From: Hirudo medicinalis
Taxonomy: Eukaryota > Annelida > Clitellata > Hirudinida > Hirudinidae
Reading direction: 5' to 3'
DNA length: 64,000 nt
Assembly (NCBI GenBank): GCA_011800805.1
Contig: MPNW01000047.1
Coordinates: 120,735 to 184,734 of the forward strand
A model generated the notes under the pieces. The model was not told the DNA's origin and searched no databases. It saw only the letters and a list, made by a program, of their open reading frames with translations. Within the stretch, counting starts at the first letter, position 1. Each line of letters opens with the position of its first letter. Position numbers and translations under genes: made by a program. Shown here one piece after another: positions 15,923 to 47,878 of the stretch.

Positions 15923-17757
15923 ATGTTGGATCCATCCTCAAGTGAAGAATCTGATCAGGAAAGAGGACCGGCAGGAGCAGAGGAAGAAACCTCTTGCTCG
16001 GAAGGGAAGCACAGCTTTCCAGGAAGTGTTGACCAGCGCAGCCTTTCTGCCATTAGCTTTGGAAGTGCCGAAACGAATGCTACTGCTGCGATGAGCAGCT
16101 ACAGCACTGGGTCAGGAAATTTTTCAGCATACCAAGAGAGGGGTGTTGCTCCTATTTCCAGTGGACCTTCAGGAGCTGTTGTGAGTGGCTCATCCATGGC
16201 CCATCTGATACACAGGGCTGGTGGAAGCATAAGAGGGGACCCCAGAGATGCCAGACCTGCTAGTCCCAGTCCGTCGCAGGCATCAGAGCGAGAAACAGAA
16301 CAAGAGAGGGCTGAACGCGAGGAGGAAATCAGGAGGAAACGTCTCCAGTTGTACGTTTTTGTCTTGCGATGCATCGCCTATCCGTTCAATGCCAAACAGC
16401 CGACAGACATGGTCAAGAGGCAGTTGAAGATGAATAAGCAACAGCTGCAGTCGACAAAAGAACGTTTTCAGTCCTTCTTAAGGGGCGAGCTTGGAATAGC
16501 GTCTGACGAGGCATTCACCAATGCTGTTCAGAGCTATTACGAGTCCTTCCTCAAAAGCGATCGAGTGTCCGCCATGGTTAAGGGAGGGTTCTGCTCGGCC
16601 AATGATTTCAGAGACATTTTCAAGGTGAGCAAGGTGAATGTCCCACTGTTGAAAGACTTTTTTTTTTACAAGTATTTTAAACTATTACTCAAATCTTTTT
16701 CTGTCTGATTAGATTTTCAAAGGCATAATGACGAACAATTTGTTATTTTTTAAAATAATTATGGTTATTAATTAATATTTTTTCAATATTCTTTCAATTA
16801 CACAACAAAACGACGTGACTGAGCTCGGCAGACGAGGGTAGCGTTTAAACCGAACAGCACGGTAAAGGTTACACGAGATCATTTTTCCAGAATAATGTGG
16901 ATAAAAGAATCAGACGTCTGCCCGAAATCGAGGGACTGCCCAAAGAGACGGTGCTCAACTCCTGGATGGGAAAGTTTGACCAAATTCTCAGGGGCGATGA
17001 AGACCCCAGGAAGTGGTCCCAGAGGATGGGGGGTAACATCCCTGGGAGTTCTGAAGCCATCCTGACCAAGGAGCAGTTGTTCGATGTCTTTCAGAACATA
17101 CTCGGGGTCAAGAAGTATGAGCACCAGATCCTGTACAATGCCCTCCAGGTTTGTGGTGGCTTTCTTTGATAGTTATGATGGTGATAATGAAGACAATGGT
17201 TACAGTGATGATGGATATAATAATGGTGATGATGATGATGATGGATGTGATGATGGTGTTGATGCTGGATGTGATGATCGTCATGGCTACGATGATGGTG
17301 ATTAATGAAGGTGTTGATAATGGCCATGAGGATTAGTGACAGTCATGGTTACGGAGTTGATGATTACAGTCAGTGGTGACTGATAGGAATTGATTATTGG
17401 AGGTTGTGAAGGTGGTTTTCATGAAGAACTTAGAAGAAGAAGAAGAAGAAGAAGAATAATAATAAGAAATAGGAGAAGAAGAAGAAGAAGAAGAATAAGA
17501 AGAAGAAGAATAATAAGAAGAAAAAGAAGAAGAAGAATAAGAAGAAGAATGATAAGAATAAGAATAAGAAGAAGAAGAATGAGAAGAATAAGAATAAGAA
17601 GAGGAAGATGAAGAAGAAAAAGAAGAAAAAGACATTGATGAAGATGAGGAAATTGATCATTTGATTACACCACGGTGTCCGACGAAGCATGAGGACTTAA
17701 TTTATTTAGGAGACTGACAAAATATCGTTGCTACCGTTTTTGAAGCAATGAGATCAA

Positions 17758-17789
<32 letters not shown>

Positions 17790-17817
17790 CGACGACGATG
17801 ACGATGATGATGATCAC

Positions 17818-17852
<35 letters not shown>

Positions 17853-20800
17853 CAATGATGAAGATGGCACTGATTTCGATTATCATGTTTTTGTTATTTT
17901 TTATTGTTATTGGTCTTTTGAGGTAGATTTAGACACAGTTGATGTCAGGTGGCTTAATTAATGTTGTCACCATCTCACACCATCCACCCATTTTCACCAT
18001 CATCATCATCATCAAAACGTGAGGATGTTGTCCAGGAGCCAATTTTTAATCGCGACCTTAAACACGGTGAATATTATTCACCGACATTTTCCGAGCGATG
18101 CGTTTTGCATCGGCAGACGCGTTCGAAAACAACGACAAGCTCATTTTCTCCTCCGCAATGCGGCGTACGAAACGTAAATAAGATCGGGTCGCAGACGACT
18201 TTTTGCCGCGACTTGCGACCCTCCTCGGCCGGACGAAAATGATTTCTAAGATGAAAAAATCACCGACTCCGCACTGCCGTCGATTAAATTTGATGCTCTG
18301 AAACTTCAAATTCAACCTCGAATGAATGAATGAATGTTCGGGGAGTCTTGGAACTTCGCAAACAGTTTAATATTGGTCGTGTGATTTTTTGCGATTTAGG
18401 CATCGGTGAGACTAAATATAGATGTAATTATAAATAATAAGTCATCTAAGATGTGCATGAAAATTAAGGTACAATTATTTGAATAAGGTTAATTATAATA
18501 TAATTTATTATTAGTAGTATTTATAATATAAATTATATTAATATTATAATATAATTATATTTAAATTTAAAAAAAAAATAAATTATATTAATTTAATAAT
18601 ATTAATATTAATTATATATAATTATATATAATTATATATTATATTAATTATATAATTATATAATTATATATAATTATATATAATTATATATTATATTAAT
18701 TATATATAAATATATATTAATATTAATATTATTAAATTAATATAATTTAATAAATTATAATATATAATATATTAATATATAATAATATATAATATATAAA
18801 ATATATAATATTATAATATAATTTTGAAAATATCATCCCATCACCTCCCTTCTAAGACTGTCAACAGTATATTATATTTGACTTTAACAAACCTAAAATC
18901 TTATCCTTTTTTCTGATTGACTTCGGAGTGAATTGTGAATTTACGGCATTCGCATGCACGTCGAGCGAGATTTCGGAAAATGCAGAAATTTTGAATCGGC
19001 ACTAACGAACGACCGTCGTCGTCACGAGGTCCGATGGTGTCGTCGAGAACGACGGAAGGATGGACGGTTGTTGAAGATTATAAAATTAGATGAAATGAAT
19101 CATGCAGGGCACCAATGAAGCCAAGAGGAGGACTGAAACAGTTTCGACAGGAGATGAGTCACAGTTTCATGGGCATGTGATGTCTAAAGATGAAAATCTA
19201 ATAATTAATTATCTGAATATCGATGAATGAATGCATTTAATCAGCCCGTTCATATTAACTCGAATTGAATTGATTAGATTTTAACAGTTAATTAATCCAT
19301 CGATTGGTAGTTTAGACTCAGTTTTTGAAGGTGGTCGATCGGCCGAACGAGGTTTTTTCAAACGGATTGTAATTTTCTAGATTGTGATCGTGAATACCGT
19401 CGTCTAGGTCGCGCAATGAATCAATTTGATAAAGGGTTTTCCGTGCATCTAAAACAGTCGGTTTAATATTCGGGCGACGTCAATAGATTTTTTGAACGAT
19501 CCACGGAGCTTTCGTCATGCCGGCGATCGCGAAGACGGCCGCGTTCGCTCGGCAGACGTGATCGGACCGGAAAGCGTTGCATTGCCTTGTCCACTGGAGC
19601 GTCATTCTTCTCCAAACCGAATGACATTCGACTTGCTACCGAATTGAATTGGGTGCAGTTCGCGAACTCCGAGCGAAGTCAAAGATGCCGCTTTTCATTT
19701 TTCTTCTACGACGAGTTGAGTCCCGGTGCATGACGAGGGGTAAAAAAAATGTCGGACATGTTTTCTCTGGATCCTCGTCGGTTTCGATGGAAAGAACGAG
19801 TCGGCGATGAGTGCACTGCACAGGTTTGCACACTCCGATGCCAGTAATGCGTCCATGGCTTTGTCTTATTCAACAGATCGATGTAGCATTCCGGACTCTC
19901 CACTTTCCTCGTGTTCTCTCCTCCTCCTCTTTCCCCTTTCTCCTCCTCTTCCTTTCGGGACGGAGCATCGAGTTCTGTCTTCATCTTTGATCGGTTTATC
20001 CTCCCCCCCTCCATCTCCTTCCTTCCTTTCTTCCTTCCTTCCTTCCACATGAAGGGACAGGAGTTTGGAAATAAATTGCAGAGAGCCTTTCCAAGCGTGC
20101 TGTCCTTTATGGTCCCCCTTTGAAACCCTGATGGAGGAGGCTGCCAGCAGCTTGGAAAGGCCGGCAAGGATGCGATTGATCGTGCAGAGGATGGTGAGAA
20201 GAATTTCCCGAAAGTTCGGGCTTGACGGAAAAATCAATCAGCTGACCGGGGCAAGCACTGCTGAGCCGTCCGGTTGATTCTTTGTTTCAATCGATCATTT
20301 TGGCTTCCATGTGTTTAACTCCTCGTGTCAACTGAGCGATCATATCAATCAAATGACCTTGTTGCTATTTTTGGGACGCCTAGCCTGGTAGTCAAGGTGG
20401 AGGTCCACTGAAGGATTGTTATGACTTGAGCTTGATTGATGGACAGTGTTGTTGTTGTTGTTCTTGTTGTTCTTGTTGTTGGTGCATACAGTTGAAAGTC
20501 CTCTGCTGAAGTTAGCCATTTGTAACTTCTCCTTGGCTGTGGCTATCCATTCAGTTTTGGAGCAAAATTGTGCATCCTCCGATTTCCTTCCTTCTCTTAT
20601 GGGATTACATCCATCATGCCTGATCTAATTAAGATGACTTGCTTTCCAGCGATTGGACATAGCAGCAGCAGAAGCAGACGGCTTCAGTTCCAAAAGATCC
20701 ACTTTCCTTTTCCTTGGTTTTCCAACAAAACTTTGGCTGTAGGTTGATGCCTCATACATGAAGTAACTCATGATTCACTCCAATGACAAGTTATTGCAAT

Positions 20801-23800
20801 TTCTCTTCCTGAGTAATTACAATGCAAATATGTTAATTAAATGTTAATTAATATGTAAATATTAACTCTTCTAAGGTTCGAGATGTATCTGTTTATTGTT
20901 TGAATTGTTTCTCACAATAATTGCTTCCTTTCCTCATTTTGAAATTTGCTTTCCATTTCCAGCTGGACAACGCTGACGAGCAGGCGGCTCAGGTCAGGAG
21001 GGAGTTGGATTGCAGACTCCATGCGGCAGAGGAATTGGCCAAGGTACCCTGCACGTTTGTCTTTGCTTTTTCCATGTTTTTGTTTCTTTTTTATTCTTTC
21101 ATTTCATTCCGTTGGGATTGGCGAACGAAACACAATGTGGGGTAAATTAGTATATACGACTAAGAAGCAGTGATGAATGCGATGCTCTGAAAAGTGTGGC
21201 CTACAGACGACCAGAAAAACAAACAATGGGAATTGAATAGACAACATTTGTATGATTTTTGGATCGATCAATTGAATGAGTCATTGTTTACAACTCGACA
21301 TGACATCATCGACATCATCATCAACATCATCACATTGATCACGAACCTGTCGAGGTTAAAGGAATGCATTCCTTTTGAATGCAGTCACGATGATGCCAAA
21401 GAAATGTCTATTGTTAGAAAACCATGACATCATAATGACATGGTAACATTACTGGCAATAACAACGTAATGTTCACGAGGAGTATCTGCAGAGAGATTGG
21501 CCGGCGCATTGTACATTGTGCGCACGAGTCCCATGGTTGCAATTAATTTTTCCAGCTATCTCCAAACCATGGCGTGAATTAACGGCACAGCATTTCCACT
21601 AAGGAAACGTATGGCGGGGGGCCATGAATAAAGAACATTGGAAGATCGTGGAAAACCCTCTTTAAAAACTCCTTTAACTGATTTGAAGAGACATCGCTAG
21701 CCATAGTAGAGGGCGCTTGCTGCCCACAGCAATGTATTTATTCGTCTGAGTTCCGCACATCCGTGGACCATACGTCCAAAACCTTCGAAAACCCTTTTCC
21801 ATTTGCCATCCAAGCCACAAAAAAAAAGGGGAAGACCTTTTCGAGACGTGCAGGAAAATAAATCAGGCCCGATATGATTGACTTCATTGTCCCTTGATTG
21901 CTCTTTTCCTGCTCAATTTAATGATGGAGTGCTTAAGCCAGATTTTTTTCTTTTTTATCTTTTCCGCCTCGCAGGTCGGATGCGTCTGCTCGAAACATGT
22001 CGTGTTTTTCGTGATGGGACTCCCCTTTTTTCGTTTTTATTTTTATTTTTATTTTTTTGGTTCTCGGCCAAGTAAGTTTTATCGCTTCTCCCTCCAGATG
22101 CATTTTATAGCCGGTGGATCGATGGCCCTAATTTTGGACAGCATATTGGGGGTCTCGGTCGATGCAATAACCGGCCGTCTCATTGTGACTTTGCGCCGTC
22201 CGTCCGAATAAATCCAGCCTCGAGTTTGTTTAGCGTAGAAGTTTTTTTTTTTTTACAGAGAATTGATCCATTCCTGGCCTCATTTTATTGTTATTTCAAA
22301 ATTTGTTGTTTTTGGTCTGGCATTAGCTTGTCTCGATTGTTTATTTAACTTGTCCTCCATCAACAATCCAACCATCCTCCATCAACAATACAACAATTGA
22401 CGTGCTCTTTTTTTGTCGTCATTCGATTCAGAGGAGAAGGGCACTCCCAAGGTTCGTTGTCAAGGAGATGGACACCATGTACGTGGAGGAGTTGCGTGCT
22501 TCTGTGGCCCTGCTGATGGCCAACTTGGAGAGCGTTCCGGTCACCAAGGGAACGACGGACTCCAAATACTCCCTGAACAAATTCAAAAGATATAACAAGT
22601 GAGTCAAGAGTCTCTTACGACTGAAAAGTTATAAATAAACAAAATAATCATGAATTCGTTCCATAAGTTCTGGAGATGATGCATGTCTGTGACAGTTTGG
22701 CAAAATGGTAAATGTCGCTTATCCACAGTTGTTCTCCGATACTAGCATTGGTCGCCTTCCGAGCATCGGCTGCCGGGCAAAACAAAAACAAAGCATCCTC
22801 TCTCTTTTTTTTTTATCTCTAACTTTCTTCTTATCAACTTCAACTTATCTTCATTCCAATTACTGCTGGTGGAATGAATGAAGGAACGAACGAGTGAGTG
22901 AGTGAGTGAGTGAGTGAGTGAGTGAGTGAGTGAGTGAATGAATGAATGAATGAATGAGTGAATGAATGAATGAGTGAATTTCGATGGTTTGAAAACAACA
23001 GAAAAAAGAAAGTAGGTTGTAAATAAAGAATCCTTTTCTAACATGTTTTGCATTTTGNNNNNNNNNNNNNNNNNNNNNNNNNNNNNNNNNNNNNNNNNNN
23101 NNNNNNNNNNNNNNNNNNNNNNNNNNNNNNNNNNNNNNNNNNNNNNNNNNNNNNNNNNNNNNNNNNNNNNNNNNNNNNNNNNNNNNNNNNNNNNNNNNNN
23201 NNNNNNNNNNNNNNNNNNNNNNNNNNNNNNNNNNNNNNNNNNNNNNNNNNNNNNNNNNNNNNNNNNNNNNNNNNNNNNNNNNNNNNNNNNNNNNNNNNNN
23301 NNNNNNNNNNNNNNNNNNNNNNNNNNNNGCGTAAAAGCATTCGCGGGACTTTCGAAAATTATGGGCTTCTCGAATGATCCTCTCCCATCAGAATTTTGTT
23401 TTCCAAACTAGCCGAACGACGCTTCCAAACAGATATTTACGAGAGGAACTCAAAATCGCATATTATGTTTTCATTTTTATACATATATTTATTAAACCAA
23501 AAAATCCAGAATTAGATGGTGAGTCTGAATTTATCAACTGATTTCGCTCGTTCTCCCATCCAGGACCAGCACTCCGGGCGTCACAAAGGTCGACGTGTCC
23601 GAGGACAACGAACCGGCCCTGTCGAAGATGGATCTCGTTCTGACTTTTGCCATGGAGGTGAGCAATCATATTTTTTTGTGCAATCGTCTTCAAACGGCTG
23701 ACGGTTTTGTCGTAGTCTGAATAATTAATGGGAGTTGTCCTGAAACGAGCGACGACGGTTTTTGTAAGTTGGCTGCCAGTTGATTTTGGTCATCAAAAAT

Positions 23801-24890
23801 TTATGGCGTCGATGGCTATGTAAATCCTAAAACTCGAGGATCATCATCATGGAATTTTATTTTCTCGATCGGTGAATTTGCAACGTGACTAACGCTCCGC
23901 AATCTGACCCAGGTCGTCGTCATGGAAGTGAAGGGCCTCAAGTCCCTGCCCCCGAACAAGATCGTCTACTGCACCATGGAGGTGGACGGAGCAGACAAGT
24001 TGCAGACGGATCAGGCCGAAGCTTCCAGACCCTGGTGGGCAGTTTCAGATCTTTATTAGCTCCTAATAATCAGCAATTTGACACCTTTCAGGTGGTGATT
24101 TAATGCTCCAATTTTCTGTCGACCGGCACTTTCTAATGCGCTTAAATTATGCATCCTCCCATTTTGTAAACAGGGAGGCTGCGGGGGATGATTTTCTTGT
24201 GTTTTTTTTTTAAAGCATTATTTTTGTCGACGATTTTTAATTCCTTTTCGTTCCATCCCTTGCGGACGAGAGTCTCGTCCGGGCAATCGTAAGATGGCAA
24301 TCTTGTCGATGTTCTCTCTTCGCTCGATCAATCGCTCGACGACCGTCTAGGAGCAATCACGACGCATCAGACAACCTCGGACTGTGATTTCACCTTTAAT
24401 TGAACTCTGGCTTTTCCAGCCAAAAAACCATCTCCGTCCGAGGCCATTTTCGGCCCACGGTAAATCCTCCATCTCCCATTAGCTGGGATCAAAAGGCGCA
24501 ATATTTTAGGCTCGCTTCATGTGTCTCTGCCCGACAAATTTTTTACGTGCAGAAATAGCTTCTCCATCCATCCATCAACCATTCATGCCTTACTCGATCG
24601 CCATCTTTTGATAATTTTTTTTGAGCATCTTTGAAAAAAGGAAAATTTAAACAAACAGTCTTCCTACAAGTTCGTCAAGTCAAATGAGAACTCCGAACGA
24701 AATTCACCCTCGAGTGCAGTTTGCTCCACGGACGATGGACTTGCCGTACTTTTCCAGTTGCTTTTGCCTTTTTTTTTTCGAAATCACATGCTATTATGTG
24801 TCATATAATATTTATTATTATTAGAGATTATGCATTAAATGATTTTAATAAACTCAATAAATAAATCAATCGATCGATCGATCGAGTAAA

Positions 24891-24927
<37 letters not shown>

Positions 24928-25843
24928 GTCATCGTCACCATCTCTCAGTCACATCCAAGTCTTCGTTCGAAGCAGACGACAACTTTACAGAATCGTCTTA
25001 GTTCTCGATGCACTCAGGCCACTCCACCTGCCTCTGGAGACATGTGTTGAAAAAAAAAAATAAATCCATTCACTAAAAAAAGAAAAAAAAAATTTAATTT
25101 TTCCAGCTGGGACACCCAGGGAGATTTTACAACCAACTACCCCCTCCCCATGGTGAAAGTGAAACTCTTCACAGAAAGCTCCGGACTTCTGAGTCTTGAG
25201 GACAAGGAGCTCGGAAGGGTGAGCAGTCTGTGTGAAGATAATTATTTAGTCAATTAAACGGTATTAATTAATATTATAATATAATAATAATAGTATTTTA
25301 TTTATTATTGATTATTTAGTTAATTAAACGGTATTAATTAAGATTATTAATTACTATTGTTATTATTATATTATAAAATTAATTATTATTGATTATTTAG
25401 TTAATTAAACGGTATTAATTTATATTATTAATTATTATTATATTATAATATTAATTATTACTAATTATTTAGTCAATTAAACGGTATTAATTTATATTAT
25501 TAATTATTATTATATTATAATATTAATTATTACTAATTATTTAGTTAATTAAACGGTATTAATTCTCCTGCAATCGTGAAAACATTGTTCTTTTAAACCA
25601 ACTCCACCAGTAAAACTCATTCTTTATCAATTATTTTATCAAATCATTACAATTCATTTTATCGTTTGCGTCCTTCGTACGCAGCCAGTCACGTGCCCTC
25701 GAAGAACTGGGCTATTTAGGACGTTCTCCCGCGACAGGACTCGAACCCGAGCTGCCGTCGCGAGAGGCGAAGTCTCAAACATTAGACCTTATTATTATTA
25801 TTGTCGTCGTCGTTGTTGTTGTTGTTGTTGTTGTTATTATTGC

Positions 25844-25875
<32 letters not shown>

Positions 25876-28800
25876 GATTTAATTAATTGAAAACTGAAAT
25901 AAATCGACAGGAGTAGGAAATTCGACGGCAGGATATTAAACTCCGGCCATGGAACTCCACATGGCGTTAATTCGTCCGGTCGTTGTGCTTCACTTTTAGC
26001 CTTTATCGGTCTCATTTGAAGGCCATTTTTTGGTCGTTTCCCACTCATTTGCAGCATCCGTTGCTTTCCGGCCGAGGGTCGCTCCATTTATACCTCACCG
26101 AGATGAAAGCCCATGGGTGGAGATGCAAAAGGCCCCTGCACTCCTTTGTCGTCTGCTCCTTCGCTCCCTCGTTCTGCTCGTTCTGCTATTTTGAATTCAG
26201 TTTTTTTCGGAGAGGACCATTAGCTAACTTTTCTTCTCAAATGTCTAATTATAAACCAAACTGAATTCGCCTCGTGGTTTTTTGGAGTAGTTGTTTTTGG
26301 CCGCTTTTTTGTAAACTATTTTGAATCGGAGAGGTTTTATCTTTGTTTTTCGTTTTTTTTGGTTTTTGGCCGTACCCATCCGACTCAGTAGCCCGTGCTG
26401 TCCCGGTTAGGGCGAAAATTATGAAACTTTGACAGGCTGCCTTAAATCTGGGGTTTGGCGACCCACGTCTCGAGCAGACGAGGAGCGTGCGCTTTTCTCC
26501 GATGTCCGCCATTTTCCTGGGAATTTTATATCCAATAATTCGTGAGGTTCCATAACTTTAGATCTTGCGAGTCTTGATCTTTCCCTTTCTCTCTGATGCT
26601 CGTTATCTCTCTTTTAACTCTTTCCTTTGTTTCATGCCCTTTTTCTGCGTTGCCCCCTTCATGCTGACCCTCCCTCATGCTGACCCTCCTCGTGCTGACC
26701 CCCCTCGTGCTGACCCCCCAGGCCAGCTCGTAAATTCGTTGGTCGCGTGGAAATAATAAGAGTTTGTTTGGACAGAGGCCACCTTTTTAACACTTTTTTT
26801 TTTGGCCCTTTGTTGCCGAAATTAGTTTTGCTCGGGATGCGATAGCAAACGTGCGGCCATCGTTGTTCTATAATTATTCTAGAAAGGAAAAAAGAGCGTG
26901 CTCCCCAAAAAGCATGCCCCCTGTGTTCGAAAATCATCCATCCATCGAATGCAACAATCAAATATGGATGGCTAGAAATACAATTAATTTAGAAAAGACT
27001 GGGGATGCATTTATTTTGAGCATCAACTGATTGTTTTTCTGCATCGCTGTTTTTCTGTGCCTTCTTCTCTCTTGCCAGCCTTGCAGAGGTTGCAACATTG
27101 AAGCCGGTGTCGTGACTGTCACCTCGTCTTTATCATCTTCGTCCTCGGCAAGAACCCACAGCGACGACATCGTCGTCGGCGATCGAACACGAGAATGCTG
27201 GCGTCCTTGTTGCATTCTTGTACTTTGCAATTACCTGTAATATTGTTGTTAAAATCGGTATCCGAATAATAAGGCACGACGTAGTAAAATGTCATGATAA
27301 TAATAATAATAATATGGGTTACAAGGCACATAAATTATGCCGGACGAAAGGAATAATATTTGGCAAGAAAGGAGATCATCTCCATCTTTATCTTTCTTTT
27401 TTTCTTCTTCTTCTTCCACCTTTTCTTCCATCACGGATACCTCCTGGAGAAACCTCCCTCAGAATCGTATCGTGCAACGAGCCAGTAAAGGAGAAGTGCT
27501 CTGAAGAGGACGACGACGACGACGATGATGAAGATGATGGAGTTGTTCAGCTGAAGAAAGACAATGATACCACCGGACTGTGATGATGATGATGATGTCG
27601 ATGATGATGATGATGATGACGAGGACGACGACGATGATGAAGATGATGGAGTTGTTCAGCTGAAGAAAGACAATGATACCACCGAACTGTGATGATGATG
27701 ATGATGATGTCGATGATGACGATGACGATGATGACGATGACGATGACGATGACGACGACGACGATGACGATGATGAATATGATGTTAAAACAAAGCTGGA
27801 CTGAGATGAGGGGGCCTGCTTGAGGATGATTATGATTATGATTACGATGGTCGTGGAGATTGATGAGGATGAAGATGAAGGAAATGAAGACGCTAATGAT
27901 TGTGACGACGACGACGACGATGATGACGATGACGGCCGTAACGAGATGATAAAGCATGAAAGTGACTCACATCAAACATAAGTCTTTCTCTCGAGAGAGT
28001 CGAGCATCGAGCAGTCCAGACGGTCCAGATGATGATTATGATTCTCAAGACGGCGATGATGATTGTGATTTTCAAGACGACGATGTCGCAAGCGGGATAT
28101 TTTCTGAATTATTCAAGCGAAGCGGGACGAAGCTTAATGCCCTCAAGAGCGTCAAATGCACGTGTCTCAACCTGGAGAGTGTAAAAACAGGTCAAAGTCA
28201 AAAAAAAAAAAATACATGACGACAAGGCATTGGTCAAGCGAATCTAGGTCGAAATTTAAGGGACCACTGTAATAGGTGGACGGCGAAAATAGATCCGCCC
28301 ATCCCAGCTGGAGGGGAAATCTGAGGGCAAAAAAGACCCTCTTCCATCCATTCCATCTGCTCTGCTGGTGTGAGCACATCTCTGAGCTTGTGTGAATGTG
28401 ACCGAATATGACCTTAGGTGTGTCATATTTGGATGAACATCCTATGCCCTTACCAGGTACAGGAGGCTCTGCAGAGCTTGGAAAGTGAAAGTGAGAGAAG
28501 CTTGTTTGACTCGAGATGGAAAACTTCTACAGTGAGCTCGGGATTGAGATGTACTTTTGCCAGTTGACAAATCTTCATTCTCAGGAAAAGGTGGCATTTT
28601 CTTGTCACAATAATGTCATTGTTGTCACAGGATTGATCACCATTATCATATTAGGCATCCTGAAATATCCCTGGCACCACCATCTCTGTCTCCAACCCAG
28701 CAGCATATGCACCAGTACTCCCCTGTCTTCACACATGCGGCCATTCTGATTTTTTGGACCAGCCTGGAGGGCAAGAGTCGATGTAATTTCCTTGTTTTCG

Positions 28801-31800
28801 CTTTTTCGAGACGACCCCTTCGCATCTCTCCGCTCATTCTTTGCTTCTCCCTCATCGGTTCTCTTGGCCTTCTTGGGTTTCCTGCTTCATTTGTTTTGTG
28901 CTTGGGATTGTTTTTTTTTTCACTTGCTTGGGTCAAGAGGAGAGGGGAGATCAGAAGATGAGTGGTGTTGTTGGTGATAATGATGACGACGATGGTGCTG
29001 ATAATGATGACATTCATGGTGATTATGATGGAGACAAAGAGGCCCTCAATAATAAATAATGCCTTAATGGTGATGACCATGCAAACAGTCCAAAAATAGT
29101 CAGTTATATATATATTATGTATATTATGTACTATATTATACACTATATATATTATAGTATATATATATGCTTCCTCTTTTCAGGTCATAATCACTCCGAC
29201 AGCCACCAGCCCCAAAACGCCCGAGTGGTATCAGCTGACGACCACCAAGAACTGCCCGGATAAAAACTTAAAGATCAAGATCGCCATCAGAATCGACAAG
29301 CCACAGAATCTCAAACACTGCGGGTTGGCTGTGGACGAACGAATGAATGAATGAATGGATGAATGGGGAGTGAATTAATGAATTGCTGGATAGACAGAAG
29401 AGTGAATGGATGGATGGACGATAGGTGAATGAAAGCCTGCATGTATGAGTTAACAAATGAATGAATGAATGAGCGAACGAACAAATGAACGAATGATTTA
29501 TTTGTTCATCAAGTATTTCAGAATACGGATTCTCCCAGGGGAGTTGATGTTGTCGATTGGTCTGCACGCAAACAAACGCGCTGAAGAAGAGAAGAGAGAA
29601 AAAAAAAAGAAAAATGTTAGAATCGAACGAAGACAAAAAAATCAGAGGGAAATCAAACTTAAGCCGGGAAAAAAAAGTCAAAACAAGGGAGGAAGTCAAA
29701 AGGACTAAAAATAAACAAACGTCTGCCGAAGGTCAAGATTGGGTCGAAAGGAAGGGATAAAGTGGAATGTTTGGATGGCGTGCAGGTTGCCCGAACGGGT
29801 TGCGTTCCTGCATGCGGCGGTACTGGCAACAGTCGCAACGTGTCGTGTTCGAAACCTAGCCGCACTGCTGCAAGTGCCCTCGGGAAGGAGCGCTATATAA
29901 ATGGTCGACAAGAAGTGCCTCTGATGACATAAGTACGGTGCTATATAAATGAACTACAATTACATTTACATTTAAGGGGACTAAATGTTTACCCTTTTAG
30001 ATAGGTGGGTGGATGGATCTGTTGATGGATGAGTGGATGGATCTGTTGATGGATGAGTGGACGGATCTGTTGATGGATGAGTGGACGGATCTGTTGATGG
30101 ATGAGTGGACGGATCTGTTGATGGATGAGTGGATGGATCTGTTGATGGATGAGTGGATGGATCTATTGATGGATGAGTGGATGGATCTATTGATGGATGA
30201 GTGGATGGATCTATTGATGGATGAGTGGACGGATCTATTGATGGATGGATGGATGATGAACGAGCAATCATTGTGCTTTCCTTGCCTCAGCTACCTGTAC
30301 GCACAAGGGAAGAATATCTGGAAGAGGTGGAAGAAGAGGTACTACGTGCTCGTACAGGTGGGTGGAATTGTCATCGATGTCATTTGAAATGCATGCAATA
30401 TTATTATTATTACAATTACGTTGTTAATTATGCTATTTAGTTATTTATTTTTACAATAAATTTTAACCTTTTTCATAATTTTTGTTACCACAAACTACTA
30501 TTGTTATAGTTACGATTAGTGATATTTATCTTTTTCCTTTTCTTTGATTATAAACACTTATAACCTCGACAAATGTACTCTCCCTCGTACAGGTGTCCCA
30601 GTACACCTTTGCGATGTGCAGCTACCACGAGAGGAAACCGGATCCAGTGGAAATCCAACAACTGGATGGATTCACTGTGGACTACTGCGAACAATTGGAA
30701 GGTCAGGATTGGTTAAGTAATAACTGACTAATTAGTAGTTATGGTTAAGTAATAAACTTGTAGTGCTCTTGAAGTTCAGCTGGAACTTACTCAATGCTAA
30801 TGAAACTCGCTCTCAATCAATCAATCAATCAATCATTTAATTAACCAATCACTCAAGCAATTGGTGCTGGTCAACTAATAATAAATCTATAATATAAAAG
30901 CAGAAAATACATCTGTATGTCTGTCTGTCTGTTCCAAGAACTCTTCCCAAACGGTGAACGGTAGCGACTTGAAATTTGCACACGTCATTATTCTCTGTGC
31001 CACTCTTAGGTCAACTGAGCTATTTTCAACCTTCAAGTTTTTCCAACCTTCACCTTTTCCTAAATCGCACACCAGCTTTGGACGGACTCGAGAGCTGCTG
31101 GAAGCAAGAAGCATTGTGCTCCGGCACGGACTAATATTTGAGACTTCGCCTCTCATGATGGCAGCTCGGGTTCGAGTCCTGTTGCGGGAGAACGGTCTTG
31201 ATCGTCCAGTTCTTTGAAGACGAGCATGTTTATAAGTAGTGTGTGACTGACAAAGCCGGTTTAAAAAAGCTAATACATTATAAATGGCTGGCTTTCTCCT
31301 ACTTTTGTTTCACTTTGACCCTCTCGTCGCCTTTTCCAGGCGTGGAGGGTGGTAGGTTCTTCTTCAACATCGTGCGCGAGGGAGACCATACGACCTTCGC
31401 CACCGACGATGAAGCCGAGAGGTCGCTCTGGGTTCAGGCCATCTACAGGGCTACGGGGCAGTCGCACAAGCCGGTCGCTCCCTCCAATCAGCCATCAAAG
31501 AGTACCAACGTTCAGCTGTCTAAAGTTCAAGGAGGTGATGGCCGATGATGATGATGGCGATGACTGTCTTTGTTGCTGTTGCATCATTCACAACTGTTAT
31601 CGCATTGTCGCATTGTCATTCATTCATCCGCTCGATCATACCCATCACACCTATCTCCATCCATCCATCCGTGATTAGGTTCGCACGATCGTCCGTGCAT
31701 CCGTGCTGCCATTTATCAACTCGAACATCATAATTACAATTATTATTATTATTATTCTCGACATCGTCGTTATCATCACCATCATCGTCATCATCATCAT

Positions 31801-31858
31801 CACCACCGCCAACATCACCATCATCATCATTGTCATCATCATCACCACCGCCAACATC

Positions 31859-31889
<31 letters not shown>

Positions 31890-32798
31890 TCACCACAGTC
31901 ACCACCGCCATCATCATCATCATCATCATCGTCGTCGTCGTCGTCGTCGTCGTCATCGTCATCGTCGTCATTGCACTGAAGACGCGGACAAGGCTCGAAA
32001 GCACGGACTGGACGAATTCGTGACCTCGGTCCCCGGGAACTTCGACCACCACGACCTCTTCCAGGTGCTCCAGAGACTCACACTCGAACATCGCCTCAAC
32101 GATCAGTTCACCTCTCTGGTAGGATGATGATGATGGTGATGGTGGTGGTGATGGTAGTAGTGACGACGACGATGATGGTGATGATGATGACGAGACGACG
32201 ACGACGACGATGATGATGATGATGATGATGTTGGCGGTGATGACGATGATGACGACGATGACGACGACGACGATGATGATGTTGATGATGATGATGATGT
32301 TGGCGGTGATGATGATGATGATGATGACGATGACGATGACGATGATGGTGGTGGTCATGGCAATGTAATGGTTTTTATAATGATGGCTCAACATTGGGAA
32401 CTAACGTATGCCAGACATGTCTCGGACTTGGGAGATGACGTGTGATTGATGGATGGACAGATGAATGGGCAAATGGAGAGATGGATGGATGGACAAATGG
32501 ATAAAAGGACAGGTGGGTGCATGGATTAATGTGTAGATAAATGCGTGGCCTAATCTATTCAGTCCAAAAAAGCAAAATGACACGGATGAACGTTCCATTT
32601 GAATTTCCAGGGATGGTTCAGCCCGGGTCAGATATTTGTCCTCGACGAGTATTGCGCCCGCTACGGAGTGAGGGGCTGCAAGAGGCACCTGTCCTACTTG
32701 ACGGAGCTGTTGGACCACTCCCAACAGGGGATCATGATTGACTCCACCCTCATGCACTACAGTTTTGCTTTCTGTGCATCCCATGTCCATGGCAACAG
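15923..32798 (+). CDS. CADPS: Calcium-dependent secretion activator (CAPS/UNC-31), 5' two thirds only
   Basis: Thirteen phase-consistent exons: 15923-16624, 16891-17148, 20963-21043, 22432-22598, 23564-23657, 23913-24034, 25107-25218, 29184-29323, 30291-30357, 30593-30701, 31340-31534, 31982-32118 and 32611-32798. Exon 1 has a Ser/Glu-rich variable N-terminus, then [20 protein letters not shown] and [20 protein letters not shown]. The C2-like domain includes [20 protein letters not shown] and [11 protein letters not shown]. The PH domain begins at [20 protein letters not shown] and ends at [16 protein letters not shown]. The last exon has [17 protein letters not shown] and ends [12 protein letters not shown](R). 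CAPS primes dense-core vesicles, binding PI(4,5)P2 through the PH domain and SNAREs through the MUN/MHD region. That C-terminal half should follow at once but is absent from the window. Introns 2-12 are unusually rich in microsatellites. The frame is continuous across the 271-N gap, so no exon is lost in it. Confidence 0.92.
17425..17640 (+). repeat. (GAA)n purine tract
   Basis: About 210 bp of GAA repeats broken by AAT and AGG units: one strand all purine apart from scattered T. Such tracts can adopt triplex structures, which is general knowledge and untested here. Confidence 0.9.
18470..18830. repeat. AT-only block
   Basis: About 350 bp composed almost wholly of A and T, with many near-palindromic TATATAAT/ATTAATAT units able to form cruciform-like hairpins. 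Confidence 0.85.
22872..22980 (+). repeat. (GAGT)n/(GAAT)n tetranucleotide array
   Basis: A tandem tetranucleotide array in CADPS intron 4 shifts from GAGT units to GAAT units. It lies just before the assembly gap and may explain why assembly failed there. Confidence 0.9.
23058..23328. other. Assembly gap (271 N)
   Basis: Unknown sequence inside CADPS intron 4. Flanking exons join in phase, so no CADPS coding sequence needs to be in the gap. Confidence 0.99.
24890..24935 (+). repeat. (ATC)n microsatellite
   Basis: A run of CATCATCATC in CADPS intron 6, preceded by a short ATCG tetranucleotide run at about 24,868-24,884. Confidence 0.85.
25238..25565 (+). repeat. Tandem repeat of about 70-82 bp units, about 4.5 copies
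   Basis: Each unit starts with ATTATTTAGTTAATTAAACG followed by GTATTAATT, then an AT-rich spacer of ATTATTA/TATTATA units. The third and fourth units are nearly identical. The core is far more conserved than the spacer. It lies in CADPS intron 7. Confidence 0.85.
25683..25790 (-). repeat. SINE family B, copy on the minus strand
   Basis: On the minus strand it carries GCTCGGGTTCGAGTCC, a perfect polymerase III B box, followed by TGTCGCGGGAGAACG. It aligns with 31,130-31,243 over about 100 bp with only scattered differences. A (ATT/GTT/ATC) array lies next to it at about 25,790-25,875. Confidence 0.65.
27495..27790 (+). repeat. Two-copy tandem duplication inside a GAC/GAT array
   Basis: A unit of about 107 bp containing GGAGTTGTTCAGCTGAAGAA and AAGACAATGATACCACCG occurs at about 27,508-27,614 and again at about 27,615-27,721, flanked by GAC/GAT triplets. 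It lies in CADPS intron 7. Open frames across it are triplet artefacts. Confidence 0.85.
29098..29170 (+). repeat. (TA)n-rich run next to CADPS exon 8
   Basis: A TATATA/ATTATG run ends about 14 bases before the exon 8 acceptor at 29,183, so it replaces most of the usual polypyrimidine region; only TTCCTCTTTTCAG remains. Confidence 0.75.
29778..29974 (+). repeat. SINE family A, copy 2 (near full length)
   Basis: The A-box region is GGTTGCCCGAACGGGTTGCG and the B-box region is GTGTTCGAAACCTAG. The body is GGAAGGAGCGCTATATAAAT, then GTGCCTCTGATGACATAAG, ending ACTACAATTACATTTACATT. It matches copy 1 and lies in CADPS intron 8. Confidence 0.8.
30006..30256 (+). repeat. 24-bp minisatellite, about 10 copies
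   Basis: The unit is approximately GGATCTGTTGATGGATGAGT plus GGAC/GGAT, in near-perfect tandem, ending about 30 bp before the exon 9 acceptor (30,290). Because the unit is a multiple of three, long repeat-coded frames run through it on both strands. These are artefacts. Confidence 0.9.
30893..31010 (+). mobile_element. Possible Helitron- or MITE-like terminus
   Basis: TCTATAATATAAAAGC followed by TATGTCTGTCTGTCTG resembles a terminus seen in many invertebrate Helitron-type or other dispersed elements. No 3' end or hairpin was identified, so this is a weak call. Confidence 0.25.
31130..31243 (+). repeat. SINE family B, plus-strand copy
   Basis: Contains GAGACTTCGCCTCTC, then GCTCGGGTTCGAGTCC (consensus B box), then TTGCGGGAGAACGG and CCAGTTCTTTGAAG. 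It corresponds to the minus-strand copy at 25,683-25,790. It lies in CADPS intron 10. Confidence 0.65.
31735..31980 (+). repeat. (ATC)n-type array upstream of CADPS exon 12
   Basis: About 240 bp of ATT, ATC, ACC and GTC triplets, including CACCACCGCCAACATCACC twice. It runs to within about ten bases of the exon 12 acceptor and is the reverse complement in kind of the array at 32,119-32,360. Confidence 0.9.
32119..32360 (+). repeat. (GAT)n-type array downstream of CADPS exon 12
   Basis: About 240 bp of GAT, GAC and GGT triplets beginning at the exon 12 donor, with GATGTTGGCGGTGATGA twice. It pairs in inverted orientation with the array at 31,735-31,980, leaving exon 12 in the loop. Confidence 0.9.
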
Positions 32799-32874
32799 GT
32801 GATGATGATGACGATGATGATGATGATGATTGGGGTGGTGGTGATGATGATGATGATGTTTCATGACACATTAG
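32799..32874 (+). repeat. (GATGAT)n array joining the CADPS break to the tyrosinase break
   Basis: Starts at the donor after CADPS exon 13 and runs to about 32,860. It is followed by a short acceptor-like TTCATGACACATTAG before the tyrosinase-like exon at 32,875. CADPS is missing its 3' half on one side and the tyrosinase its 5' half on the other. Confidence 0.85.
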
Positions 32875-33984
32875 GATGTCGGAATTTCCATGGTTTGAAC
32901 GATGGCTTCTTTTTAAATTTGAAGAATTTTTGAGAACAAAATTAATTTGGTTATGTTTCAAACTAATGTTAAACTATCCGGCGATGTTGTCGTCATGGTT
33001 TGTGTTGAACTTTTAGACTCGTTGTTATTATATTATATTATATTATATTATATTATATTATATTATATCACATCACATCACATCACATCACATCACATCA
33101 CATCACATCACATCACATCACATCACATTACATTATATTATATTATATTCCATCTTTAAAGGTTTGAATTAGCTATGGGTAGATACTTCCGTAGCTGCAC
33201 TTTGCCTTACTGGGATAACAGATTGTTGGCAAGGTCGGGACCAAACCCAAGACATTCAGTCCTTTTTACTCCCGAGTTGTTCGGAGAAGCCTACGGTGAA
33301 GTTAGGAGCGGATTCGCAGCAGGTTTTAAGACCATCAATTCTACCTCTTGCCAGGAAATTTCTAAGATTCTCACTCGAGCAGTGCCAAGTCGTGTTGAAG
33401 GACTGTTTGAAGATATCTTTGCTTCCTATGTTTCATCAGCCAAGCATTACAAAGAGTTATGCTCGCCATGGAATGAGACATTCGAGATGATTCATGGAGA
33501 TGTCCATATGTTCATAGGACAACTGATGGCTTATCTGTCATGCGCACCCAGTGACCCTCTCTTTTTTCTCCACCATTGCTTCGTTGACTACATGTATGAG
33601 AAACATTTTAGATCCTCTTTCAAGGAAAAATTTCCAGAGATTAACTTGACTTATCCAGAAATTTTTGAGAGAGATGATTTGGAAGACATTTATGCTGGCG
33701 ATGCTATCATGATGCCTTTTGGTATCTTGCATGAAGACATGCTTGCTGACGACAATTTCGTTCCTTCGTATTCCAAATCTCCTGGTGATGTGGAGTGTTT
33801 GAAGGATGAAGATTGCTGTGCCAATAAAAACACCGAATACATCTGGTGTCACACGACAACCAGACGTTGCATCGCCAAAATCCAAGAGAAAGGAAAGGTT
33901 TTACCCGGCTTTCCAAACAAGGCCTGCTACTGCAAGTCACCAAAGAATCCTGTTATTGAATGGGGTTTCTGCAAGTGCTTATGA
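32875..33984 (+). CDS. Tyrosinase-family (type 3 copper) protein, 5' end missing
   Basis: Two exons are supported: 32875-32949 and 33162-33984, joining in phase, about 299 residues. The first encodes EFPWFERWLLFKFEEFLR, which aligns without gaps to the CuA block of tyrosinases (FPAWHRLYLLRFEDALR type). The copper-ligand His is Glu here and the preceding Trp is Phe. The second has LPYWDNR, then an intact CuB site: FEMIHGDVHMFIGQLM, and SDPLFFLHHCFVDYMYEKH. A Cys-rich tail follows, rich in CxxxxCC and CYC motifs, ending WGFCKCL. Active members oxidise phenols or catechols in pigment, shell or cuticle hardening. Loss of a CuA ligand suggests loss of that activity. The signal peptide and the first CuA histidines are not in the 76 bp before exon A, so the gene is truncated here or the join is artificial. 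Confidence 0.8.
33028..33150 (+). repeat. Pentanucleotide array (TATAT/CACAT types)
   Basis: A run of TTATA pentamers changes abruptly to CACAT pentamers and back to TTATA. It fills most of the intron between the two tyrosinase exons. Confidence 0.9.
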
Positions 33985-37600: not shown

Positions 37601-37790
37601 TCGATGGACTACGTTCCGCTTCTCGCTAGTCTTATTTTTGCCTGTTTTTTATTTTATTTTTCAAATTTGTTTTTATTAATTCTCTGCCCGAGTCAATTAC
37701 ATAAATAATCTAGTTAAATCTAGTTCATAATTATTTTTGAAATTACGCTCAATATCTTCCTAAAGTCATAGTTATGTAATTCCTAGAAAG

Positions 37791-40444
37791 ATGACAACCA
37801 CTCATCTCTCGAACAATTTCGGTTCTCAAAATGCAACCCCGGAGAGCTACAACGAAGCAATATTTCTTCTCTGCATCTCGTCTGTCGGCTTAATCTCGAA
37901 CATAGCTGTGGTCATTTGTATCCTTTCAAATCGTCATCTACGTAGAACTGCCAGTGCATTCATCATCCATGGCTGTGTGCTGGACAGTGTTCGTTGCTTC
38001 TACTGTGTCCCTTTTGCTGTGAGCCTTCTATGGGATGTTGCACCAGGTTTGTGCGCGGTTTTAGGAGGATCGTATGTGGTCGTTGTGACTGCATCTGGCT
38101 TCAACATCGTGGCCATGGTTTGCTGTGAAGCATACGTCTTTGGAGAAAAAAGTCTTCACAATCTGGAAGAGGTTCAACAACACGACAATGGTAGTATCTG
38201 CTGCGTGGCTTTCGGCATCCTCATGGTCTATGCCACCAGTCTCATCATACATCTCGGACCGACGATAATTGGTGGAGACTTCAACTACAATGACCTTATC
38301 GGCAACTGTGTGTTCGTCTATGGAACTATAAAGAGTTATGTGGCTCAAGCAATGTGGATAATCATCACGACTCTCTCCATGTTTGGCACACTTTACTACC
38401 TCTTCTACTTCCATCGACACGTGCAGAACTACGCCAAAAACCAATCCGCCTCTTCCGCTCGAGCTTCCACAGTCGACTTAAGGAACCCGAAGGATGAAAG
38501 AATATCAAAGAGGATTCTCCAACAAGCCCTTTCGAGGTGCAGGGTTCTCATAACAATCTCATTAGTCTTCGTTTTCAGCTGGTTTCCACTCTTTGTCCTC
38601 ACCCTAATAGACCCAAAATTCCAACAACCGAGCAAAATCTACAAGCTCCTCACTTTCATAGCCTGGTCCAACGCTGCAATCAACCCTATGATATTCATAC
38701 TCTACGATCAAAGTATAGATGCAATCTGGAGGTAAAAGTCTTACATTACATTGGTTCATGTGCATTTCTTATAAATGTATATAGATTTCAGGAGTATTGT
38801 TAACATTGTTAAGCAGATACAATGTGGAATTGTGGTAGATGTTTTCTAATGAAGATAGGACCGTAAAGCTTTATGAATGCTTAGTCAAGTTATAGGGCTG
38901 AAGTTATATTAGATGTCACACTGAATTCCAGAAGCTAAAAGACAAAGTTTATCAGATAATTATACAGAAATAAGTGGGACTTTTTTTGGGGTCAAGATAT
39001 TTGCTGCAATTTGTGCTCCCGCATGATCTAAGACGCTGTCCATTTTTTTTTAAGTTGAGGGCCGTGCCAGAAATCGATGTTTGACAAACGTTGTTTTTAT
39101 ATTTATTAGCTTAATAATACATTAATAATCATTTTACAACCAAAACTGTGGTTCAAAATAAAAAGAGAGAAATAAAATGTCCAAACATATTACATTAGCA
39201 CATATGGTTTTAAATAAAAAGTTTTTCCTTTGGGCAATCATAACCACAACGAGTGTCCACATTAAATTTCTAAAAAGTTCATATGATAATGAAAGTAAAA
39301 GAGTTTCCTTCTTGATATATTTCTTATTACCATCTTTTTAATGCTTCATCAAACAAGTCGTTTCATTAGAAATGCAGGCATTCATTTTAACTCATTTATA
39401 TGGCTTCTGCGTTTCAGCTAAAATCCAGCTCTAAAAGTGTTTCGATAACAACAGTCCACTAAACTAATTTAACACAACCGAGTAAGATTCCAGATTCTTT
39501 ACAGAGAGGCAACTTTGCTTTGTCCTCATTGTGCAGCTTTGCTCTTCCTTTCGTGACAATGGATGGAGCTAAAATCATTACAAATTTATGGTGCCTCAAT
39601 AACTTACAAAATACTTGGATTGAAAATTAGTTAGAAATTTGGTTAAAATTAGTTACTTAGAAAGTTGCTTCCTGCGAGCGACGGTAAAAGCAACAGTCGT
39701 TACGAGTCGTGTTCGCAACCCAACTTGCAGCGCCACAAACCGCATTTGGGAGACGGTGCTACATAAATGGTCTAAGCGTCCTACGCTTATGGTGCTATAT
39801 AAATATACCTATTATTATTTTTTTCAAAATCTAGAACTAGAAATCCTAACAAGTACAATAAAAATATTGGCTTATTACTTGATTAATTATTACTTCATAA
39901 GCGAAGTCTTTACTTAATAATTTTTTCAGTAAATTGTAAAATTTAGCATAAAATCAGTCTGAGGGCCGTATATCTCCCGCGGTTTGGTAAGCACTTGTTT
40001 AGGATGTAACATTTGGGTAGTCAGATTCCCTTGCGAAATCAACAATTCAACAACTCCTTACGGAAGCTCAGCAGAATATACAATCCTTATTATCCAATAA
40101 ACAGTCATTTTTTTAAATATCAATTGCAGGGTTTGCCCGGTCATGGTGCCTAATAAAGTGCGCGGTTGCAGAATTTCGCGCTCACATCAAGACATTGGAG
40201 AAATAAGGACAAATCCAGATAACAGGTGGGAATCCTCTCCTACATTTGTGCGATTATTATCATTTCATCGATGCCTTTAATATCTCTAAATTATTATATT
40301 ATTATATATATATACATATATATATATGTTTTAGATCAGTCCTTTCATTCTAGACACAGGCAAGAGTATGACAATGAAAATGTCGGTGACTTGCTACGGA
40401 TGGAAACCATGAAAGCCAACTCTAATGGAATCAACCTGATTTGA
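37791..40444 (+). CDS. Class A (rhodopsin-like) orphan GPCR
   Basis: Exons 37791-38731, 40130-40247 and 40340-40444, phase-consistent, about 387 residues. Exon 1 holds all seven helices. TM1 includes GLISNIAVVICILSN, TM2 ASAFIIHGCVLDSVRC, TM3 GGSYVVVVTASGFNIVAMVC, TM6 CRVLITISLVFVFSWFPLFV and TM7 IAWSNAAINPMIFILYD. N-glycosylation sites lie in the short N-terminus. The DRY position at the end of TM3 reads EAY, so Arg3.50 is absent, while NPxxF at TM7 and FxxxWFP at TM6 are kept. The third loop is short and basic, and the tail encoded by the two small exons is basic and Ser/Arg-rich. The ligand is not predictable. The last splice (to 40,340) was chosen for frame and is less sure than the first. 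A family A SINE lies in intron 1. Confidence 0.75.
39657..39808 (+). repeat. SINE family A, copy 4
   Basis: GTTGCTTCCTGCGAGCGACG, GTCGTGTTCGCAACCCAAC, a GGGAGACGGTGCTACATAAA body and TTATGGTGCTATATAAATA end. The A box is lost. It lies in GPCR intron 1. Confidence 0.65.
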
Positions 40445-47190: not shown

Positions 47191-47607
47191 GCAACAGACG
47201 CATAAGGTTCATCGCAGGGAGTTCGCTGAAGGGGACACAGTGTACTTGAGGCTGTACAAAGATCCAAGAGGTCAATGGGTCCCAGGAGTGGTCATCAGGA
47301 GACTGGGAACAGTGTCCTACGATGTCCGATCGAGCAACAAGAATCAGCTGAGACCTCGATCGGTGGATGATGCCCTCAATGTCATGCTGGAGCCCTTCAA
47401 CTTGCCTCTGTTGCCCCTCAGCAAACCACACACGGAACAGGGAAGCAGCAACCCAGTTGTTACGGATTCTGTCACAAGAGACGAGGAAGATGTTCTTGCT
47501 GGACCAGAACAAACTCCATGACAGAAGAGGAAACGCCGACCGCCAAGAAGATTGGAGTTGGACACTTCAAGGAAGAAGTACAACTTTTGTTAGGAGGGGA
47601 GGTGTTG

Positions 47608-47697
47608 TGGTGAGAGCCAATCAGAGTGGAGCGCGCCAGAAGACAANTGGAGTTGGACACTTCAAGGAAGAAGTACAACTTTTGTTAGGAGGGGAGG
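47608..47697 (+). repeat. Duplicated LTR start with one N
   Basis: The first 39 bp or so of the LTR plus the preceding 50-60 bp occur twice in tandem (about 47,548-47,646 and 47,648-47,740), with a single N at 47,647 at the junction. This looks like two contig ends with unmerged overlap. Confidence 0.75.
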
Positions 47698-47878
47698 TGT
47701 TGTGGTGAGAGCCAATCAGAGTGGAGCGCGCCAGAAGACAATAGAATGTTGACTATAAAGAGCCTCTGGCTACCACTCGCACTTTCTCTCTCTCGCTTAG
47801 TGACCGTGTATATTAACTTGTCAGTTAATAAACTCGTACGTTTTCTAGTTAGTTCTTCTCGATTCGAGCGATATAACA
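47698..47878 (+). repeat. 3' LTR
   Basis: 181 bp. It matches the 5' LTR and has lost a few pyrimidine and TTG repeat units. It is followed directly by CAAAG (47,879-47,883), the right target-site duplication. Confidence 0.92.

What the first reader, a model, noticed from the sequence alone, without database searches (positions are those of the whole stretch)
32611..33300. CADPS loses its 3' half and a tyrosinase loses its 5' half at the same GAT microsatellite
Seen: the last CADPS exon (32,611-32,798) ends in phase at HVHGN, where the family continues into the MUN/MHD region. Nothing like that region follows. After a (GATGAT)n array of about 60 bp, the next exon (32,875) is the middle of a tyrosinase, with no room for its signal peptide or first copper histidines. 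Inference: one breakpoint in the array explains both truncations. It is either a genomic rearrangement that fused two loci or an assembly misjoin through a repeat that is very common in this stretch. Introns also turn from microsatellite-laden to AT-rich across the point. If genomic, the junction phases would even allow a CADPS-tyrosinase chimeric transcript (AG + G).
Basis: partly seen in the sequence, partly recalled or inferred. Interest (0 to 1): 0.8.

Follow-up and report, generated by a model that had tools for sequence, protein, structure and literature searches.

The report
Assembly misjoin between two ordinary genes
A draft leech-like genome assembly wrongly glues the front half of a nerve-secretion gene to the back half of a pigment-type enzyme gene at a short repeat; each missing half, apart from a short middle stretch of the first gene, lies at the end of another piece of the same assembly, so both genes look ordinary.

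Summary
Both truncations are real in the assembled sequence, but they are most likely an assembly error, not biology. CADPS stops in phase at 32,798; the tyrosinase exon starts at 33,162 (not 32,875). The missing tyrosinase 5' exon lies at the left end of contig C528 of the same assembly. That contig reads CuA exon, a 222-bp intron with good splice sites, then the first 49 bases of the window's exon. Its last 119 bases equal window 33,092-33,210, and a genome-wide DNA search with its terminal 600 bases matched only C528 and C47. The CADPS 3' half lies near the left end of contig C677 (1,565-4,925). P0001, a close CADPS relative in one uninterrupted frame, runs from the window exons into the C677 exons. 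The joined tyrosinase is collinear with the Helobdella robusta protein (61% identity, 99% coverage).

The join is most likely not in the GAT array but in the (ATTAT)n part of a compound ATTAT/ATCAC array (33,027 to about 33,068). The ATTAT-to-ATCAC switch occurs only in C47 and C528; the pure (ATTAT)n 30-mer matches at 524 (overlapping) positions. The chimeric-transcript idea has no support and was not testable here. About 141 CADPS residues remain unplaced: the whole-genome search for them did not complete.

The parts
16349..32798 (+).
32611..32798 (+). last CADPS exon in the window, ends HVHGN + AG (phase 2), donor GT at 32799
   Evidence: 100% identity to P0001
32800..32858 (+).
32859..33026 (.). 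non-repeat stretch with no match of its own elsewhere in the assembly (one GAT-array match, on C456 at 78%, spills into it to 32,898); composition leans to the CADPS side; no exon recognised here
33027..33153 (.). compound (ATTAT)n then (ATCAC)n array; the wrong join is most likely in its pure (ATTAT)n part, 33,027 to about 33,068
33092..33210 (+). 119 bases identical to the left end of contig C528 (reverse strand)
   Evidence: C528 and C47 are the only two contigs matched
33162..33984 (+). last exon of a tyrosinase (CuB histidines, Cys-rich tail, stop); its CuA exon is at C528:272-about 465 (-)

Best explanation
Contig C47, which contains the window, is chimeric. Its left part (CADPS 5' half) and right part (tyrosinase 3' exon onward) come from two different loci and were joined by the assembler inside a low-complexity array, most likely the (ATTAT)n run at window 33,027 to about 33,068. 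In the real genome the right part continues leftward into contig C528, giving a tyrosinase gene with both copper sites. The left part continues, through CADPS exons not yet placed, into contig C677, giving a CADPS gene of normal domain order. Shown: both continuations exist in the same assembly; for the tyrosinase with matching sequence, splice phase and order, for CADPS by collinearity with P0001. Inferred: that the error arose in assembly rather than in the animal, and the exact base of the join.
For: C528, reverse strand, reads CuA exon ...SAHNGPSFILWHRFYIY-AT, donor GTATAA at 271, 222-bp intron, acceptor, then 49 bases identical to the start of the window's exon, in frame. Its terminal 119 bases equal window 33,092-33,210. 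A genome-wide DNA search with C528:1-600 finds only C528 itself and C47:153,756-153,944 (the tool skips simple repeats). The ATTAT-to-ATCAC switch 30-mer occurs twice in 133 Mb, once in C47 and once in C528, while the pure (ATTAT)n 30-mer matches at 524 overlapping positions. The joined tyrosinase scores 93.7 bits over PF00264 positions 2-210, against 58.6 bits, best stretch 145-210, for the window part alone. It is collinear with H. robusta P0122 (61% identity, 99% coverage) and with P0123 (60%, 99%). CADPS: P0001 residues 1-649 map to the window and 791-1171 to C677:1,565-4,922. P0001 is one 1171-aa frame on a 4,590-base contig; it is 98% identical over the best local alignment, which covers 48% of the composite query. 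C677 starts in a microsatellite 1.5 kb before its first recognised CADPS exon.
Against: No reads, optical map or second assembly of this animal were available, so a rearrangement in the sequenced individual is not formally excluded. P0001 residues 650-790 were not located: the whole-genome search did not complete (15 tries), and neither the window nor the first 10 kb of C677 or C528 holds them (no match above 20 bits at E <= 10). The array copy numbers differ between C47 and C528 (ATCAC 12 and 7, ATTAT 8 and 4, longest pure runs). The 168-bp stretch 32,859-33,026 could in principle come from a third locus.
Confidence: 0.95

Rival explanations
1. A real, perhaps heterozygous, rearrangement fused the CADPS and tyrosinase loci; C47 and C528 are two haplotypes of the right-hand locus and a chimeric CADPS-tyrosinase transcript is possible.
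For: C47 and C528 both lead into the same right-hand sequence with different array copy numbers. The junction phases (AG + G) would keep the frame. The join contains no Ns; the window's only N runs are at 23,058-23,328 and 47,647.
Against: It would break two genes that are uninterrupted in relatives, exactly at an array whose unit recurs at hundreds of positions, in an assembly where 8 of the 13 readable contig ends that I looked at (not a random sample) lie in or beside tandem repeats (judged by eye). C528 does not run into CADPS sequence, as a reciprocal product would; it runs into the tyrosinase exon.
Confidence: 0.03
2. CADPS continues downstream of the window and the tyrosinase is nested in a long CADPS intron.
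For: C47 extends more than 100 kb beyond the window, and nested genes are common (general knowledge).
Against: The CADPS 3' half is on another contig, C677, and the tyrosinase has its 5' exon on C528. The MUN profile search lists no match on C47.
Confidence: 0.01
3. A variant of the misjoin reading: the break is in the GAT array (32,800-32,858) and the stretch 32,859-33,026 comes from a third locus, so the contig has two bad joins.
For: GAT arrays are shared by many contigs. The middle stretch is AT-rich, GC 0.327.
Against: The middle stretch has no match of its own elsewhere, and an order-3 Markov comparison favours the CADPS-intron side (log-likelihood ratio 6.8; the 95th percentile of right-side windows is 0.4). 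At order 1 it is not decisive (1.4 against 3.4).
Confidence: 0.12

Closest known systems
Chimeric contig (repeat-mediated assembly misjoin)
   Same: Two half genes meet at a low-complexity array; each other half is at the end of another contig; the competing contig ends in a short exact overlap with the chimeric one.
   Different: No difference seen; that reads fail to span the join could not be tested.
CADPS/CAPS (calcium-dependent secretion activator)
   Same: C2_CAPS, PH and MUN regions in the usual order when the window and C677 are read together through P0001; best local alignments 98% to P0001 (48% of the query) and 80% to a Helobdella robusta protein (45% of the query).
   Different: In the assembly it is split over two contigs with about 141 residues unplaced.
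Helobdella robusta tyrosinase-domain protein HELRODRAFT_168144 (P0122)
   Same: 61% identity over 99% of the joined C528 + window protein, same CuA/CuB layout and Cys-rich tail.
   Different: In this assembly the gene is split between C528 and C47.

Membership tests
Tyrosinase (PF00264), joined C528 + window gene | CuA site: three histidines (H..H..WHR) | tested here: met
   LFHDGE, SAHNG and WHRF on C528; profile covered from position 2. Which histidines bind copper is recalled knowledge.
Tyrosinase (PF00264), joined C528 + window gene | CuB site: HxxxH and the HH of FFLHHC | tested here: met
   IHGDVHMF and FFLHHCFVD in the window exon.
Tyrosinase (PF00264), window part alone | CuA site | tested here: not met
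   best stretch profile positions 145-210; the exon from 33,162 starts after the WHR motif.
CADPS/CAPS, window part | N-terminal region, C2_CAPS and PH region | tested here: met
   P0001 residues 1-649 map to the window; P0001 has C2_CAPS 310-409 and PH 414-513. Single window exons gave no Pfam match over the cut-off.
CADPS/CAPS, window part | MUN domain | tested here: not met
   no MUN match on C47; present on C677.
Genomic gene fusion | the fused join is the only or the main continuation of both genes | tested here: not met
   normal continuation of the tyrosinase on C528, CADPS 3' half on C677.
Assembly misjoin | reads or maps fail to span the join | not testable with these tools
   no reads available.
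Chimeric transcript | transcript joining 32,798 to 33,162 | not tested
   no RNA reads; the closest CADPS found (P0001) goes to its own linker and MUN.

The most novel reading that the evidence does not exclude
The animal carries a real, possibly heterozygous, rearrangement at an (ATTAT)n array that links CADPS exons in frame to a tyrosinase exon, and C528 is the other haplotype.
Probability: 0.03. Interest if true: 0.4.

Novelty: not a real feature. Interest (0 to 1): 0.07.

Why it matters
It matters only for curation. C47 should be broken near window 33,030-33,070 (C47 about 153,760-153,805). Its right part belongs with C528 and its left part with C677; gene models there would otherwise show two false truncations and a possible false fusion. 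Several contig ends in this assembly lie in tandem repeats, so other fusions seen at arrays in it deserve the same check.

Tried and rejected
Nested-gene reading: rejected, since the CADPS 3' half is on C677 and the tyrosinase 5' exon on C528. Exon at 32,875 as a CuA remnant: the frame has three stops by 33,018 and a CuA exon in register is on C528. Other tyrosinase loci as the source of the missing half: C14, C416 and C59 each carry CuA-like and CuB-like exons in the right order (by eye). C1171 does not settle the point in the same way: on its minus strand a CuA-like exon lies downstream of the CuB-like exon and ends at an N gap, so it is an orphan too; it is set aside only because C528, not C1171, shares sequence with the window. 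A second CADPS locus (C16, minus strand) matches P0001 in order at about 28-78% identity, so it is not the missing 3' half; the ten C677 blocks match at 84-100%, except two at 60% and 75% that run across an intron. Trying to name the species: two library searches (listings and starts of abstracts seen) and passages of two leech genome papers (PMC8787918; PMC6977106) showed, in what I saw, no assembly of 133 Mb in 1,557 pieces; the animal is left as 'leech-like annelid'. That the 119-base overlap is an assembler's k-mer length is a guess and was not tested: I fetched 16 contig ends and only looked at them.

Failed or unanswered. The own-genome search with P0001, meant to place residues 650-790, was unanswered, so the linker exons are not placed. 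A search of the DNA upstream of the first C677 exon gave only a dispersed-repeat-like family and no partner contig.

Full report
The window is C47:120,735-184,734 of a 133.0-Mb assembly in 1,557 contigs. The best named protein match is Helobdella robusta for CADPS (80% identity over 45% of the query) and for the tyrosinase (61%), so the animal is a leech-like annelid; the species was not identified.

What the window shows. A CADPS gene runs on the + strand: P0001 residues 1-649 match 13 blocks from 16,349 to 32,799, at 100% in the last exon, and no part of residues 650-1171 matches the window at E <= 0.01. The last exon ends HVHGN + AG with donor GT at 32,799. A GAT array follows (32,800-32,858), then 168 bp of non-repeat sequence, then a compound pentanucleotide array (33,027-33,153) that changes from ATTAT to ATCAC units. 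The tyrosinase exon starts at 33,162 behind the acceptor CATCTTTAAAG and is open to a stop at 33,984. It begins inside the copper-A region (FELAMGRYF...LPYWDNRL), after the copper-A histidines, and has the copper-B ones. Its best PF00264 stretch is 145-210 of 214; the six-frame genome search aligned 23-210 by reading through a stop before the exon.

The missing tyrosinase half. A PF00264 search of the own genome gave 7 matches, one of them at C528:205-372 on the minus strand, profile positions 2-60, right at the left end of that contig. Read on the minus strand, C528 gives RIEYLCLEKTQRNCVHNSILAMKSVKVGKYNEYDIFVLFHDGEKSPSAHNGPSFILWHRFYIY-AT, a GTATAA donor at 271, a 222-bp intron holding the same kind of ATTAT/ATCAC array, the same acceptor, and the first 49 bases of the window's exon, where the contig ends. 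The last 119 bases are identical to window 33,092-33,210. Searching the whole assembly with C528:1-600 returns only C528 and C47:153,756-153,944. The spliced protein (AT|G phase, in frame) scores 93.7 bits across PF00264 positions 2-210 and aligns over 99% of its length with the H. robusta protein P0122 (61%) and with P0123 (60%), both reading WHRFY(L/I)LM(F/L)EL(A/S)M across the splice. P0121, from a close relative (90% over 82% of the query), carries in front of the same exon a short stretch, NVLDDFIVIS, resembling the translated C528 intron flank (NVINDIEHDFIVIS); 17 of 1,000 shuffles reach that score, against 391 of 1,000 for the best match in the window's own flank. This last point is modest support only.

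The missing CADPS half. A MUN (PF06292) search gave 15 matches. Four lie on C677:1,529-4,235, within 5 kb of its left end. C677 starts in a TTATT/TTG microsatellite. P0001 residues 791-1171 map to C677:1,565-4,922, and the stop follows GPKN at 4,925. P0001 is a single 1,171-aa frame on a 4,590-base contig; since the gene here has many introns, I infer that it is a spliced transcript. It runs from the window's exons through about 141 residues (RPDGIGS...TEAFKL) into the C677 exons. Searched apart at E <= 10, those 141 residues match only the C16 paralogue above 22 bits, and nothing above 20 bits in the window or in the first 10 kb of C677 and C528; the whole-genome search for them did not complete. 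The second CADPS locus on C16 (minus strand) matches P0001 in order at about 28-78% identity, so it is a paralogue and not the source of the missing half.

Where the wrong join is. The 30-mer over the ATTAT-to-ATCAC switch occurs exactly twice in the assembly, in C47 (window 33,052-33,081) and in C528. C47 and C528 therefore share the switch, and the C47 left arm must enter upstream of it. The pure (ATTAT)n 30-mer has 178 + 346 = 524 exact, overlapping match positions (its built-in reversed control gives nearly the same count because the unit is nearly symmetric, so it is no null model; only the first places were listed, and these already fall on nine contigs). The simplest placement is inside the (ATTAT)n run, 33,027 to about 33,068. 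The 168 bp before it has no match of its own elsewhere; one GAT-array match, on C456 at 78%, spills into it as far as 32,898. In composition it leans to the CADPS side at Markov orders 2 and 3 but not at order 1 (the side windows were also the training data). A break in the GAT array is thus less likely, though GAT arrays are shared by many contigs too (40 of 336 candidates scored, 130 matches). The arrays differ in length between C47 and C528: ATCAC 12 and 7 copies, ATTAT 8 and 4 in the longest pure runs.

Why an assembly error and not biology. Both orphan halves lie at contig ends; the competing path (C528) gives a gene collinear with its relatives; the C47 path breaks two conserved genes; and the join is in low-complexity sequence. 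Of 18 contig ends I looked at (chosen because their contigs came up here, not at random), 5 read N; of the 13 readable ones, 8 lie in or beside tandem repeats by eye (C677 both, C16 both, C528 left, C59 right, C14 right, C1171 right). Without reads I cannot exclude a rearrangement in the sequenced animal; I give it about 3%.

Verdict. A repeat-mediated chimeric contig between an ordinary CADPS gene and an ordinary tyrosinase gene.

Noticed in passing
L026 = C16:208,001-218,000, minus strand, about 2.6-8.5 kb in the locus: A second CADPS-like gene (about 28-78% identity to P0001 per block, in order from residue 1 to 1096), so this genome seems to have two CADPS genes.
   Followed up: partly
window 32,859-33,026: 168-bp non-repeat stretch between the two arrays, AT-rich, no match of its own elsewhere in the assembly; its true neighbour on the right is unknown.
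   Followed up: partly
window 33,027-33,153 and C528:50-140: The compound array is longer in C47 than in C528 (ATCAC 12 and 7 copies, ATTAT 8 and 4); allelic variation or an assembly effect.
   Followed up: partly
L031 = C1171:48,001-58,000: On the minus strand a CuA-like tyrosinase exon (about 2316-1663) lies downstream of a CuB-like exon with a long Cys-rich tail (5038-3329), and the CuA-like exon ends at an N gap: two genes each cut by gaps, or a wrongly ordered scaffold.
   Followed up: partly
C14, C416, C59: Three further tyrosinase genes with CuA and CuB exons in order and Cys-rich tails.
   Followed up: no
window 43.6-47.7 kb: Gypsy-type retroelement fragments (by eye from ORFs) with a 95-bp near-perfect tandem duplication at 47,553-47,742 and a single N at 47,647.
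   Followed up: no
window 37,764-38,735: A 323-aa open frame of a rhodopsin-type GPCR (PF00001, 65.3 bits).
   Followed up: no
C47, C14, C59, C168, C1171 first 200 bases: The first 200 bases read as N on 5 of the 9 contig left ends that I looked at.
   Followed up: no
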